Below are positions 12,301 through 40,873 of a stretch of 64,000 nucleotides of DNA, one piece after another. Each line of letters opens with the position of its first letter. Positions within the stretch are counted from its first letter, which is position 1. The notes under the pieces were generated by a model that saw only the letters and a program-made list of their open reading frames with translations, did no database searches and was not told the origin of the DNA. This stretch comes from Neelides folsomi (taxonomy: Eukaryota; Arthropoda; Collembola; Neelipleona; Neelidae), in contig JAQGBZ010000005.1 of the NCBI GenBank assembly GCA_034687125.1, forward strand, positions 62,001 through 126,000, in the 5' to 3' direction. Position numbers and translations under genes: made by a program.

Positions 12301-12862
12301 ACATTTTAATTTTATTCTTACTATTCTTACTAGTTTTATTCTACTGTATTTATATTGACTTACCCTATTAAATAAATTCTACTGTAGTACATTGTCATAT
12401 AGTGGAGATACTTAAAATATAAAGTAGAATTTTAGCCAAATTATTCAAAAGTGAATAAAGTTAGAATTTTTTCGCACCTATACTGGGATACCAAGATGAA
12501 TCAAAAGTCATAAATAAGTTTTATTTAAATCCTTCAAACAATCTCTTATGCTTATATCGTTTAATGTTAAATGAATTATGAGAGTGGATTAGAAGGTAAA
12601 GCATCTGTATGTAGAGGAACAGATGTGTACATTGGTGGTAAGTACGTGAGCAATGCACAATAAAAATGACTCGAGGCGAAAAGCGACCCTTTTGTAAAAA
12701 ATAATGACTTGCAAAAATTCGGGGTTATTTCTCTCTTTACGTCTTTTTCGACTCCATCTTGGCATTCGTTGCTCCAAATCCTCAGTGGAAATTTATTTAA
12801 AAATAAAAATAGTAAATAAAAATACCCATCAAGTTTAAGTTGGAAAGAAAGGGAAAGGGAGG

Positions 12863-13492
12863 ATGTCATATGAAGGCCAAGGGCTTGGACATTCTAATGG
12901 AAGGCACCATAAGGATTCCCAAAATAGAGTAAGAGAGAATAAACAAATCATTTCCCATATTTTGACACTATTCTTTTGGGGTCAACAGGGTCGGATGTCG
13001 CAGCTTGATTCTCCTGGACATGTGTCTGGTATGGATGTGATGTCTGACGATGAACTCGTTTCCATCTCCGTTCGAGATTTGAACCGCACTCTTAAAATGC
13101 GTGGGCTTTCAAGGGAAGAAATCATTCGGATGAAGCAGAGAAGAAGAACTCTTAAGAATCGTGGATATGCCGCTAGGTATATTTTAATAATTATTTATGA
13201 TTGATTTTTACTCTATTTAATGAGTTTCTTTCTCGTAATGTTAGTTGCTTTATTTACAATAATAGATTTCCTTTTGAAAATTGTTCCATTATTTGTTTAT
13301 AGCTGTCGAGTAAAGCGAATTGAACAACGCGACATTCTCGACACGGATAAAAATGTGGAGGCAAATGACATTGACTCTATGTCAAACAAGAATCAACAAC
13401 TTCGGGACGAAATTGAAGATCTTCAATCAAAATATGACGCCCTTCGCAAATTCGCCATCCAGAAAAAACTCCACATCCCTTACGACTTTTAA
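12863..13492 (+). CDS. small Maf bZIP transcription factor
   Basis: The Maf signature is unmistakable. An extended homology region [17 protein letters not shown] is followed by the basic region [19 protein letters not shown] short leucine zipper-like coil ([21 protein letters not shown]) comes next and no transactivation domain, as in small Mafs. These pair with CNC factors (Cap'n'collar/Nrf2 type) at antioxidant/MARE sites in the nucleus. Exons: 12863-12928, 12989-13176 and 13303-13492. The 60-base intron 12929-12988 is inferred from GTAAGA...CAACAG in phase 0 and is itself open, so it could be retained. The intron at 13177 splits the Ser codon of AA|SCR in the basic region. Upstream residues ([13 protein letters not shown]) are not family-typical and the start is less sure; MSQLDSPGH at 12995 is an alternative. 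An AATAAA lies just after the stop (about 13498). Confidence 0.92.
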
Positions 13493-13869: not shown

Positions 13870-15258
13870 TTATTCCTTCATTTCTTCGTGAGAATCTTGA
13901 GTGTAGTCGACATTTGAATCAACGAGATTTCCTTTTTTGATCGCTCCTTTTTCAGTTTCAACGAATTTAGCTCCTTTGGTTGCCAATTTAAGGGTGCTTC
14001 GACTCAAGGTTTCAGCATATCGAAGAGGTTCTGGGATGCGAAATTTGGAAACTGACAAAACAGCGTTCTTTGCAGTCTCCAAACTAATTTTATTTCCAAC
14101 TGACACAAAAATAGCCTTTTTGGATGACGAAGAGGATTTGACAGCCTTAAAAATAAACAAGACATTATTTTTAATTATATTAAATACATTTCATTATATA
14201 CAATTAAGTTTATTAAAAATAAAAGGCTTTAAGTTGAATAAGTGGCTTTTAAAGTAAACTATTTACTATAATTTAATTTTATTAAACAGTTAAAATGGTA
14301 GCGACTATTAACATATTATAGAATTATAATACTTATATTCATTTACCATTCCAAGAGGTTTCTTGTCTTTATCAATAATTGTAAAGGAGTCTCCTGATTG
14401 TTTCAAAACCTCTTCTTTTTTCTTATTGTAATTTGTTCCTCTTATGAAAAAGAAATTTTTTGCAACCCCGATTGTTGGAATAGAAAGTTCATGGCCAATG
14501 TGACAAGCTGACCCACAACGTCTTGGGTGGAGAACTCCATTTCCTTCAGCTAAAATCAAGTCTGGAGTGAACTCTGGTTTATCATCAATTGCTTTCTTCA
14601 CAATTTCAACTAGTGGATCAGCATCTCGGAATGCAAGAAATCCTACGATTGCATAAAACATTAAAACCCATTTAGTTTAATAAATAAAACTTTTATTAAA
14701 ACATACTTTATTCTAGTTTTATGAAGTTTGACAATGGCACTTGTTCAAGACGTTTAATTTTTGATTACCTGGAACATAAGGAACGGTGAGTTTCACAATA
14801 GCAGTTTTTTCATAAACAACTTTTAATGATGGATAAGAGCAAATGACAATTGTGGGAACTGCAATCGTTTCTTCCTTGTAAACCGTTGACTGAATGTCGA
14901 GACCAGCTACATACTTCAACATGCTGAAAATAAAAATGTTATTTTAATCATTTATGAATTAATCATTGTATGTTACTGAAAGTTAGATAATTACAGTTTA
15001 AACTTTAATTTTGACATTTACTCACGTAAAGTTGTTTTGCCACAACTCGGTATTCTCAACTATGATTTTGTCTTTAACAGAATTTTGTATTCCTATCCAA
15101 GTTTGAGTCAACACTGATGGTATTTCTTTGCTGCTTTTCTTGGATTTCAATTCATCGACAGTTTCTTCGACTTCTTTAATTATCTCGTCTTTTTCGTTTT
15201 CGAAATTAGAAGGCGACATGTTGGTGAACTCTTCCGGTTGAACATTCGTAACCTCCAT
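13870..15258 (-). CDS. ENDOV: endonuclease V family nuclease with altered metal-site residues
   Basis: Four exons (15258-15026, 14923-14769, 14642-14347, 14145-13870) give 319 residues. Family motifs: AGLDIQS (catalytic Asp D87), PYVPGFLAFRD (126-136), LILAEGNGVLHPRR (158 onward), GVAKNFF, and the C-terminal SVGNKISLETA and FRIPEPLRYAE. Endonuclease V cleaves one bond 3' of deoxyinosine (bacteria) or inosine in RNA (animals). Bacterial and human enzymes have Glu at FRE and Asp at VDG as metal ligands. Here these are Asp (D136) and Glu (E162), and the usual SVGHR His is Asn (N246). I read all three codons directly from the DNA. The frame is intact, splice sites are good, and the rest of the fold is well kept. 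The N-terminal 55 residues are a charged extension, and the C-terminal 40 residues are lysine/glutamate-rich. Confidence 0.93.
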
Positions 15259-15868: not shown

Positions 15869-16759
15869 ATGAATCAGCAAAATCAAGTTCCTGTTCCTGA
15901 AACTGAAATCAAAAACATTATTTCAGCAGCCCTTTTTAACTTGTCCGAAGATCAACTTCGTCAACTAATCGAGAATGAACAATATTTCGAGAGTTTTTTG
16001 ATGAACCTTCCAAAGGTATGATATTTTTATATTAACGAATAGAAATAAAAGTCATTTCAATGAGTATGAGTTTATTCATTATGAAATGGAGCAATACTAC
16101 AGATATATCGTCGAAACAGTTATTTAATTTATTTGTTTACAGGTTCAAACTTGGAATGCGAAAAAGGCATTATTGGTGGAAAATAACAAATTAATTGCTC
16201 AGTACAATTTGACATTTGAACCCAAGCTGAATGAAGGGAAATCGAGGTTATTGAGTCTTTACGAACAAGCCAGAAATTTGGCTGATGAACTCGAGTTGAA
16301 GAGATCAAGATTGGGTAAATTAAATCTGATTAGCTTAATAATCAAAATTAATCCAATTCAAATTATAAGCATTTCTAATATAATTTTAATTTTTAAGATT
16401 CCTTATCGTCGAAGTCATCAATTGAGGCTACGCAAAATTTGTTGAAGGAAGCTGCTGATAAGAGCGAAGAAGATAGCGAAGAACTTGCCAATAAGTTACT
16501 CGATGGAGAAATTGAACTCGATGCCTTTTTAACTCCATTTTTCGAACAAAGGGCTAACATGCACCTACGAAAGTTAAAGTCTGAAAAGCTGAATGAAATG
16601 GCATCGGCACAACGAAATCGCCCGGGATCTCGTTCTGGCCCAGGTTTAATTCCACCATATCCGCAGATCAACTCAACAAATTTTGGAGGTCCTCAATCAA
16701 ATTTTGCAACGCCTCCTTATCCCGTTTCAGGTCAAAGGTTCCCTTACCCTCAGATGTAA
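15869..16759 (+). CDS. VPS37: ESCRT-I subunit VPS37
   Basis: Exons 15869-16015, 16143-16314 and 16398-16759 give 226 residues. The Mod(r) domain is recognisable: LSEDQLRQLIENEQYFESFL, VQTWNAKKALLVENNKLIAQYNL, PKLNEGKSRLLSLYEQ, and LLDGEIELDAFLTPFFEQRANMHLRKLKSEKL, an ordered set of helices. The tail is proline/glycine-rich (GPGLIPPYPQ, TPPYPVSGQRFPYPQM), as in VPS37B/C. VPS37 joins TSG101, VPS28 and MVB12 in the cytosolic ESCRT-I complex, which sorts ubiquitinated cargo into multivesicular bodies. The ATG follows AAGGCCAAA, a good context. Assignment to B or C would need a phylogeny. Confidence 0.93.
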
Positions 16760-38377: not shown

Positions 38378-40873
38378 TTATAAATGAAGATTATCATCGC
38401 TATTTAACAACTCATCTTCATCAATTTCATCCTGGTCGCCATCCCCATCATAGACATTTAAAGCAGCTGACCTCTCAAAGTCGAGATCCGAAAGTGAATC
38501 GTTGATTGATACGAGTTCGCTGACTTCTTGTGTGCTTTCCTCAGCCTTCAATTCCAATACGCGCATTTTGCTCAAGATTGAATCACGCAACTCGATATAT
38601 GAAAATGGTCGCTCTGAAGTTGCTTTTGCGGCATCTTCTTCATCCTCTCCTTGATTTCTGCAATTAAGGTCGAACATCAATTTATTAATTAAATAAGAAA
38701 TATAGAACTTTGTAGTTTTAATTTTATTTATTTAACAATTATACAAAAAATAAATAAATCGTTTACTGTTGAAGGGCTATTTGGAATCGTGGGGGTTTGA
38801 AAGGACCTCCGGTCGATTTTGGTTTCAATCCTTGATATCCAAACGGTGGGGCTTTCTTTGGCAGTGGAAGTCCGTTGACCTCGTGGCTTCTCCTTATTTC
38901 GAGAATGGATTTTTTGAAAATCAACTCGCTGATTCGATGCTCAAGGACCGTCATGCAGAGATGGGCATTAAATGGATTAATTCCGTTCATATTTCCTTTT
39001 AAAAATTAAATTGTTAATAAATAAAGATCTTATTAAATAGATGGAAACTTCTCATCAGATGAATTCAAAGCCTTTTGACATTTGGGAAAAATTTATTTAA
39101 CTACATAATTGTAAATACCAAGAAGGATAATAATGGAAGCATTGGTGCATTTGGTCATATTGAAAACGTCATCTAACAATCCTATAGCTTTCTCCATGTT
39201 CGCTTCTGTTTTATTCCATTCTTTGAGCAAGCGAATGAATTTTTCCTTTTGCTCTTGCAATTTTTCTTCCAAGATGAGCATTTCTTTCATTCGAGCTCGA
39301 TCCGTCTCTGTTGTCTCTTTATGGATTTCTTCGATTTCCTTAACAGTGTTCATATTGGCTTCTTTCAAAGCTGAAATCTGTTTACATTTTAAATAAATTA
39401 TATTAAAATAAGTTAATAAAATATTTAGTTAAATCACCCATTTCATAAGTAATCGAAAGTACTGTGGTGTTGTAAAATTATTTATTATTATTTACTTCAT
39501 GGTTAAGATCCGAAAGATATTTGAAAGCTCCAAAGTTTTTCTGTTCTCTTAATTCATAATGTTGGATGAGACCTTCAATCGTGTGGGGCTTTGTATTGAG
39601 GCTTTTGGCCATTTTGAGAATAATTTTAAAAGAATGTTCATAAAGTGCAAGACGATATTCTAATTCGCCTAACACGTTGTTCATCCGTCTTGTTTCTCTT
39701 TCATAGGAACTTTCTTGAAGCTCCCGGATTCTGTTTTTTGTACCCATAAAGTCACGTAATTTGGAGTCGTGGTGAAGAATTCGTGTAAATTCTTTGATTT
39801 CAAGAACATGCTGCTTGGAATCTTTGTCATTACGGTCTTTGAGTGAATGAATTTTATTCACGTGCTCGTCTCTATTTAACGATTTTAAATGAACTTTAGT
39901 TTCCCTTTAAAGCATTTACCTAATTGATTTAATAAAAATAAAAACAATAAAAATTGGAAGTTCTTTTGTCAAATCTACCTTTTTTCATAAGCGTTTGAAG
40001 CCTGGTAAACGATATCACCATTCCTCACTTTAATCTGATGCATTAATTTCTTATAAGCTAAGAGTCTCTTATAGAAATTTCCTCTTAATCGGAGCATCAT
40101 ATTGATTTCTTCTCTGATCGCTTTGTTCCGTGTGCAAATTGTATCAAATTGAGTCACATGCTGTATGAAAAATGTAAATATCGTTATATTGAATTCATAT
40201 GTGCAAAATGCAATCAGTGTTTACTAAACTTAAAAATAACGCGAATTTAATGTTTTAAAAATTACATGATATAAACGGTTTTCTAATAACATCAAACGCC
40301 TTTGTCCATTTCTATACGTCATAGTTTGTCCATAGATAGCTCGAACTTTGAGTTTTTGTTCAATAATCCTCTTCTGGATTTTATCAACTTCAGACTCTGA
40401 ATGAATAAAAATTTGAACGAGAATTTGAATTAAAAAATGTTATCAATCTAATTCCAAAATGTTTAAAATAAGGACAAAACACAGACATATAACGCAAATC
40501 AATATTTTATGTATTTTAATATTAAACAAAGATTACCAATTCCATCAATTGTTAAAAGACTCTGTCGTATATTGAGCATGTATTCTTCATATTTCTGAAG
40601 GATGTCCAAAATGTGTCGAATGCTCTTCTTGTCTTTTATTCGATTGACCAAAGATTCCGAGTTTGCAATGTCGGTGAGAAGAGAAGATCTCTCGGACTCA
40701 AAAACCCTCACGAGTTTTCCGGCCTGATTTGTCGCTTTCCCATAATCTTCCTGCAAGTCTTGTCGTGCATCTTCCATTAACCGATATTGGCGATGAAGTT
40801 TCAAAAACTCTTCTTTCACAAGTTTCTCAAAATCAATCTCGGAGGTTTCATCGCGGATTGACAATGAAGCCAT
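38378..40873 (-). CDS. outer dynein arm docking complex coiled-coil protein (ODAD1/CCDC63-like)
   Basis: Seven exons (40873-40537, 40396-40266, 40160-39979, 39871-39496, 39377-39119, 38995-38767, 38657-38378) give 597 residues, almost all predicted coiled coil. Matches to the CCDC114/CCDC63/ODAD family: N-terminal LVKEEFLKLHRQYRLMEDAR, then LENRLYHHVTQFDTICTRNKAIREEI, a short NYERLL-like stretch FYKRLLAYKK, IVYQASNAYEKRDEHVNKI, and RIRELQESSYERETRRMNNV. These proteins dock the outer dynein arms on doublet microtubules of motile cilia and flagella, so the gene implies flagellated sperm. The last two exons (APPFGYQGLKPKS, then an acidic tail DGDGDQDEIDEDELLNSDD) are not conserved in my memory of the family. 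The exon 5 acceptor was chosen at CAG|ATTTCAG because only that keeps the frame. Confidence 0.85.

What the first reader, a model, noticed from the sequence alone, without database searches (positions are those of the whole stretch)
14345..14925. Endonuclease V with reciprocal Glu/Asp exchange at two metal ligands
Seen: the codon for the usual Glu in the FRE motif is GAT (D136, in GFLAFRDADP), and the codon for the usual Asp in VDGxG is GAA (E162, in LILAEGNG). The usual His in SVGHR is AAT (N246). Everything else around is family-typical. Known: bacterial and human endonuclease V use Asp, Glu and Asp in these motifs to bind the catalytic metal. Inference: a swap that conserves net charge and total side-chain length suggests a compensatory, still functional metal site with changed metal or substrate preference. 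Alternatively it marks a relaxed, inactive copy kept for inosine-RNA binding.
Basis: partly seen in the sequence, partly recalled or inferred. Interest (0 to 1): 0.75.

Follow-up and report, generated by a model that had tools for sequence, protein, structure and literature searches.

The report
Animal endonuclease V with rewired acids
An animal gene for endonuclease V, an enzyme family that cuts RNA at inosine, has aspartate and glutamate exchanged at three of its four metal-binding acids while most of the rest is conserved, so it is either a re-tuned nuclease or an inosine-RNA binder that no longer cuts.

Summary
A minus-strand gene (13870-15258; four exons, GT-AG introns) encodes a 319-residue endonuclease V (PF04493, 177.8 bits; 42% identical to chain 6ozj). 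The family's acid tetrad is D-E-D-D; here it is D87-D136-E162-E273. Among 165 distinct prokaryote or viral-contig domains the second position is E in 164 of 164 with a residue and the third D in 164 of 164; the fourth is D (112) or H (44) of 156, never E. N246 is mild: N occurs in 7 of 157. No second copy was found in the 75.1 Mb assembly, and an ADAR-like gene is present. Wedge PYV, R135, H168, H177 and K191 are kept, yet the protein breaks more near-invariant columns than 156 of 158 surveyed domains. Random change would keep all three changed ligands acidic 0.5-2% of the time. Best reading: a re-dimensioned acidic metal site, probably still an inosine ribonuclease (48%); main rival, a cutting-deficient inosine-RNA binder (36%). 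Activity, animal relatives and reads were out of reach.

The parts
15026..15258 (-). Exon 1 of the EndoV gene: start codon, about 46-residue N-terminal extension, then the segment that aligns to 6ozj from residue 47 on
   Evidence: Spliced reading; alignment
14769..14923 (-). Exon 2: first metal ligand D87 (AGLD, GAC, 14898-14896, conserved) and wedge motif PYV (residues 126-128)
14347..14642 (-). Exon 3: FRDAD motif with D136 in place of the invariant Glu and D138 in place of Pro; AEGNG motif with E162 in place of the invariant Asp; H168, H177 and K191 conserved
14623..14625 (-). Codon GAT = D136, second tetrad position (TmEndoV E89, human E100); E in 164 of 164 surveyed domains with a residue
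14617..14619 (-). Codon of D138, at a position that is P in 157 of 158 surveyed domains and in 6ozj
   Evidence: place counted on
14545..14547 (-). Codon GAA = E162, third tetrad position (TmEndoV D110); D in 164 of 164 surveyed domains with a residue
13870..14145 (-). Exon 4: SVGN (N246) and RIPEPLRYAE (E273), then a C-terminal tail; stop codon ends at 13870
14092..14094 (-). Codon AAT = N246, position usually His (H 147, N 7, Y 3 of 157 surveyed domains with a residue)
14011..14013 (-). Codon GAA = E273, fourth tetrad position (E. coli D210, TmEndoV H214); D 112 and H 44 of 156 surveyed domains with a residue, E in none
   Evidence: residue names from PMC4650699 passages

Best explanation
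This is the only endonuclease V found in the assembly. Its RNase H-type acid tetrad has changed from D-E-D-D to D-D-E-E, with an added acid (D138) beside the second ligand. The likely course is stepwise compensation: one exchange moved a carboxylate by about one carbon-carbon bond and the others re-centred the metal. Shown: the gene, the four acid positions, their near-absolute conservation in the domains surveyed, no second copy found, conserved substrate-handling residues, an unbroken frame, and an ADAR-like gene that would supply inosine. Inferred: the site still binds Mg2+ or Mn2+ and still cleaves inosine-containing single-stranded RNA 3' of the inosine, perhaps more slowly or with a stronger preference for Mn2+.
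For: Family membership and intact four-exon gene. All changed tetrad positions stay acidic: neutral expectation 0.5-2%. Internal yardstick, counted: of the 24 D/E positions of 6ozj outside the tetrad the window has the same acid at 6, the other acid at 3 and no acid at 15, against 1, 3 and 0 in the tetrad. Of 32 columns at least 95% conserved in 141 non-redundant domains the window keeps 26 and 6ozj 29; kept are P126, Y127, R135, H168, H177 and K191. Mean identity to 158 domains is 33% against 37% for 6ozj; tree branch 1.52 against 1.06. No second copy. ADAR-like gene on contig C60: A_deamin exons with CHAEV, PCGDA and SCSDK and a partial dsrm match under its cut-off (20.1 against 23 bits).
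Against: No EndoV domain surveyed with a residue at ligands 2 and 3 shows either exchange, and alanine at the first or second ligand abolishes or nearly abolishes human EndoV activity (D52A, E100A; PMC3741642 passages). On the unreduced set the window departs at 5 of 30 near-invariant columns; of 158 surveyed domains only 2 depart at more (8 each) and 121 at none. It has a residue never seen in those 158 at 9 of 50 columns at least 80% conserved, 6ozj at 1. The branch is somewhat fast: more window-only than 6ozj-only changes against 137 of 158 outgroups, significant in 29. The neutral test is weak, since D and E replace each other readily under mild constraint. No activity or metal data exist.
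Confidence: 0.48

Rival explanations
1. A cutting-deficient inosine-RNA binder: the tetrad no longer supports catalysis, but pocket, wedge and RNA-binding surface are kept, so the protein marks, protects or sequesters inosine-containing RNA made by an ADAR-like enzyme.
For: Three of four ligands changed at positions conserved elsewhere. In mouse the catalytic mutant D52A gave stronger band shifts with inosine RNA than wild type (PMC4842958 passages). Wedge, H168, H177 and K191 are kept and an ADAR-like gene is present.
Against: A site freed from metal binding would not be expected to keep all four acids (neutral chance 0.5-2%) or to have another next to it (D138).
Confidence: 0.36
2. Early relaxed decay: EndoV is dispensable in this lineage and the copy is on its way out, the exchanges being near-neutral.
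For: Faster branch (1.52 against 1.06; equal rates rejected with 29 of 158 outgroups); more near-invariant columns broken than in 156 of 158 surveyed domains.
Against: Open reading frame and GT-AG splice sites over 319 residues; 26 of 32 conserved columns kept; the tetrad changes are all acid-preserving.
Confidence: 0.12
3. Assembly or base-calling error at the ligand codons.
For: Only one assembly was available and no reads.
Against: Needs three independent third-base transversions at exactly the tetrad codons plus the separate P138D; the same assembly gives intact catalytic motifs in the ADAR-like and ADAT1-like genes with GAT and GAA used normally; no frameshift in the gene.
Confidence: 0.04

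Closest known systems
Mammalian endonuclease V (human, mouse; inosine-specific ribonuclease)
   Same: 42% identity to chain 6ozj (mouse by recall), PYV wedge, FR, GNGVLH, ACH, GVAK, SVG and RIPEP.R.A motifs
   Different: Tetrad D-D-E-E instead of D-E-D-D; Asp for Pro two residues after the second ligand; N for H in SVGH; an N-terminal extension of about 46 residues
Bacterial endonuclease V (E. coli nfi, T. maritima)
   Same: Same Pfam family and ligand positions
   Different: Surveyed domains keep E and D at ligands 2 and 3 (164 of 164 each with a residue)
DUF99 / Endo_dU, an EndoV-related RNase H-fold nuclease with an incomplete DEDD tetrad (PMC11585767, passages seen)
   Same: Shows that an EndoV-like fold can be active without the full DEDD set
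   Different: Its tetrad is incomplete and it cuts deoxyuridine DNA; the window protein keeps four acids and matches the EndoV profile

Membership tests
Endonuclease V (PF04493) | Whole-protein profile score above the curated cut-off | tested here: met
   177.8 bits against 23.4
Endonuclease V (PF04493) | First catalytic Asp (TmEndoV D43, human D52) | tested here: met
   D87, GAC
Endonuclease V (PF04493) | Second ligand Glu (E89/E100) | tested here: not met
   D136; E in 164 of 164 surveyed domains with a residue
Endonuclease V (PF04493) | Third ligand Asp (TmEndoV D110) | tested here: not met
   E162; D in 164 of 164 surveyed domains with a residue
Endonuclease V (PF04493) | Fourth position Asp or His (E. 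coli D210, TmEndoV H214) | tested here: not met
   E273; D 112, H 44 of 156 with a residue
Endonuclease V (PF04493) | Wedge PYV and conserved R, H and K of the substrate site | tested here: met
   P126 Y127 V128, R135, H168, K191
Endonuclease V (PF04493) | Metal-dependent cleavage 3' of inosine | not testable with these tools
   Needs purified protein. The case is therefore put as: homologous to EndoV by sequence, atypical at three of four active-site acids, catalysis unproven

The most novel reading that the evidence does not exclude
A natural, catalytically competent D-D-E-E active site in an endonuclease V, reached by coordinated exchange of Asp and Glu at three ligands of an RNase H-type metal site, with altered metal preference; possibly fixed across a whole animal lineage.
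Probability: 0.35. Interest if true: 0.75.

Novelty: new variant of a known kind. Interest (0 to 1): 0.55.

Why it matters
The acid tetrad of EndoV and other RNase H-like nucleases is treated as fixed, and mutating it is the standard way to kill these enzymes. A natural protein that has exchanged three of the four acids while keeping most of the rest offers a direct test of how tolerant metal-dependent cleavage is to ligand length, and of whether animals use EndoV as a nuclease or as an inosine-RNA binder, a question that is open for the mammalian enzyme too (its in vivo function is called unclear in the abstract of PMC11217400, seen in the listing).

Tried and rejected
Neighbouring residues supplying the canonical ligands: rejected, both motifs align without gaps, although D138 could be an extra ligand. 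A canonical second copy, haplotype or alternative exon: not found (six frames of the 840 contigs, but only the best candidates are scored). Genetic-code reassignment: rejected, GAA is Glu and GAT is Asp at conserved motif positions (EndoV E267; ADAR-like and ADAT1-like genes). No animal collection was available. Literature: no held paper contains two of 'endonuclease V', E89D, D110E, E100D, D126E; the search for RNase HI E48D, D70E and D10E gave two unrelated papers; none of the ten papers listed for mite or Tetranychus terms holds 'endonuclease V' or 'EndoV' (2,890 held two of the four terms). Organism identity: '840 contigs' with mite found nothing and the 18S search did not complete; the group stays undetermined.

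It gave 172 domains, 167 distinct, two of them the window and 6ozj. Of the 167, 7 cover under 75% of the columns and were left out of the invariant-column counts. The three phage-collection hits and most plasmid hits (14 of 21) were not fetched. Loci were mostly best matches, so odd relatives are under-sampled. The tree used 41 surveyed rows (every fourth of those of at least 150 residues) plus the window and 6ozj, and flagged the window row as long and of unusual composition.

Full report
What is there. On the minus strand, complement(13870..14145, 14347..14642, 14769..14923, 15026..15258) encodes a 319-residue protein in four exons with GT-AG introns of 201, 126 and 102 bases. Pfam finds only Endonuclease_5 (PF04493, 177.8 bits against a cut-off of 23.4, residues 74-273). 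The best solved relative is chain 6ozj_A, listed as Endonuclease V (E = 5.8e-51; 42% identity); that it is mouse is recalled, and counting along it puts its acids at D52 and E100 and its wedge Tyr at 91, as in the human and mouse papers. The gene lies between a frame with a bZIP_Maf match (12839-13201) and one with a Mod_r match (16397-16756), both on the plus strand, so it is in ordinary animal genome sequence.

The active site. EndoV is described as having a conserved DEDD tetrad (PMC11585767, passages): in T. maritima D43, E89, D110 and H214, the last being D210 in E. coli (PMC4650699, passages; E89 and D110 also in PMC5561087, passages). The window has D87, D136, E162 and E273; 6ozj has D, E, D, D at these columns. 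N246 is the least remarkable: 7 of 157 surveyed domains have N and 3 have Y.

How rare it is. The second ligand is E in 164 of 164 with a residue, the third D in 164 of 164; the fourth is D in 112 and H in 44 of 156. Even diverged paralogues with Ser or Cys for the first Asp (in L107 and L136) keep E and D. The window is the sole exception at all three. The only animal sequence compared is 6ozj; papers name the same residues in human (D52A, Y91A and E100A tested, PMC3741642, passages) and T. brucei (PMC5561087, passages). How the ligands look in arthropods was not seen.

Constraint. Of 32 columns at least 95% conserved in 141 non-redundant domains, the window departs at six (E to D136, P to D138, D to E162, G to I196, R to K231, P to A239) and 6ozj at three. 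On the unreduced 158 domains there are 30 such columns; the window departs at 5 and 6ozj at 2, while 121 of the 158 depart at none, 29 at one, 4 at two, 1 at three, 1 at four and 2 at eight. At 50 columns at least 80% conserved the window has a residue never seen in the 158 at nine, 6ozj at one. So the protein is clearly more derived than most members. It is not falling apart: 33% mean identity to the surveyed domains against 37% for 6ozj and a tree branch of 1.52 against 1.06 (the two rows group with support 100/93). It has more unique changes than 6ozj against 137 of 158 outgroups, with equal rates rejected for 29.

Acid preservation. The changed ligands all stay acidic. Under single-base neutral change that has a chance of 0.5 to 2%, depending on transition bias and base composition. 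Using the protein as its own yardstick: of 28 Asp/Glu positions in 6ozj, the window has the same acid at 7, the other acid at 6 and no acid at 15; within the tetrad that is 1, 3 and 0, leaving 6, 3 and 15 elsewhere. These are modest tests and they do not separate catalysis from metal binding or structure.

Genome context. The assembly has 75,104,828 bases in 840 contigs; the family search found only this gene, as three exon matches, and the DNA search found only the locus itself. An ADAR-like gene lies on contig C60: A_deamin matches in several exons with CHAEV, PCGDA and SCSDK motifs. Of six stretches from that place given to Pfam, two matched A_deamin, one matched the double-stranded-RNA-binding motif in part and under its cut-off (20.1 against 23 bits), and three matched nothing. 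A single-frame A_deamin gene on C307 looks like ADAT1 by recall, and C103 has Pur_DNA_glyco. So inosine-bearing RNA should exist in this animal.

Interpretation. Acids kept at all four ligand places, a fifth acid beside them, substrate residues kept, no second copy found and an editing-type deaminase present: this is what a re-tuned metal site would look like. It is also compatible with a protein that binds inosine RNA without cutting it; in mouse the D52A mutant gave stronger band shifts than wild type (PMC4842958, passages). I put these at 48% and 36%. Early decay (12%) and assembly error (4%) are less likely but not excluded, since reads, relatives and expression were out of reach. No structure was modelled.

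Novelty. No held paper pairs 'endonuclease V' with the names of the single exchanges searched; most subscription papers are not in that library, and other notations were not searched. I class it as a new variant of a known kind, atypical at three of four defining active-site residues.

Noticed in passing
   Followed up: partly
L143-L146 (weak hits: G092, G273, G214, G253): Short, very divergent EndoV-like proteins in the same phylum; three of the four show motifs like EYIPGEFYKRELP and IIVDG without HPR; a possible separate subfamily.
   Followed up: no
   Followed up: no
window 39481-39906, minus strand: A frame matching the ODAD1 central coiled coil (outer dynein arm docking; 75.3 bits), which may mean that the animal builds motile axonemes.
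   Followed up: no
window 12839-13201 and 16397-16756, plus strand: Neighbours of the EndoV gene: frames with bZIP_Maf and Mod_r matches.
   Followed up: partly
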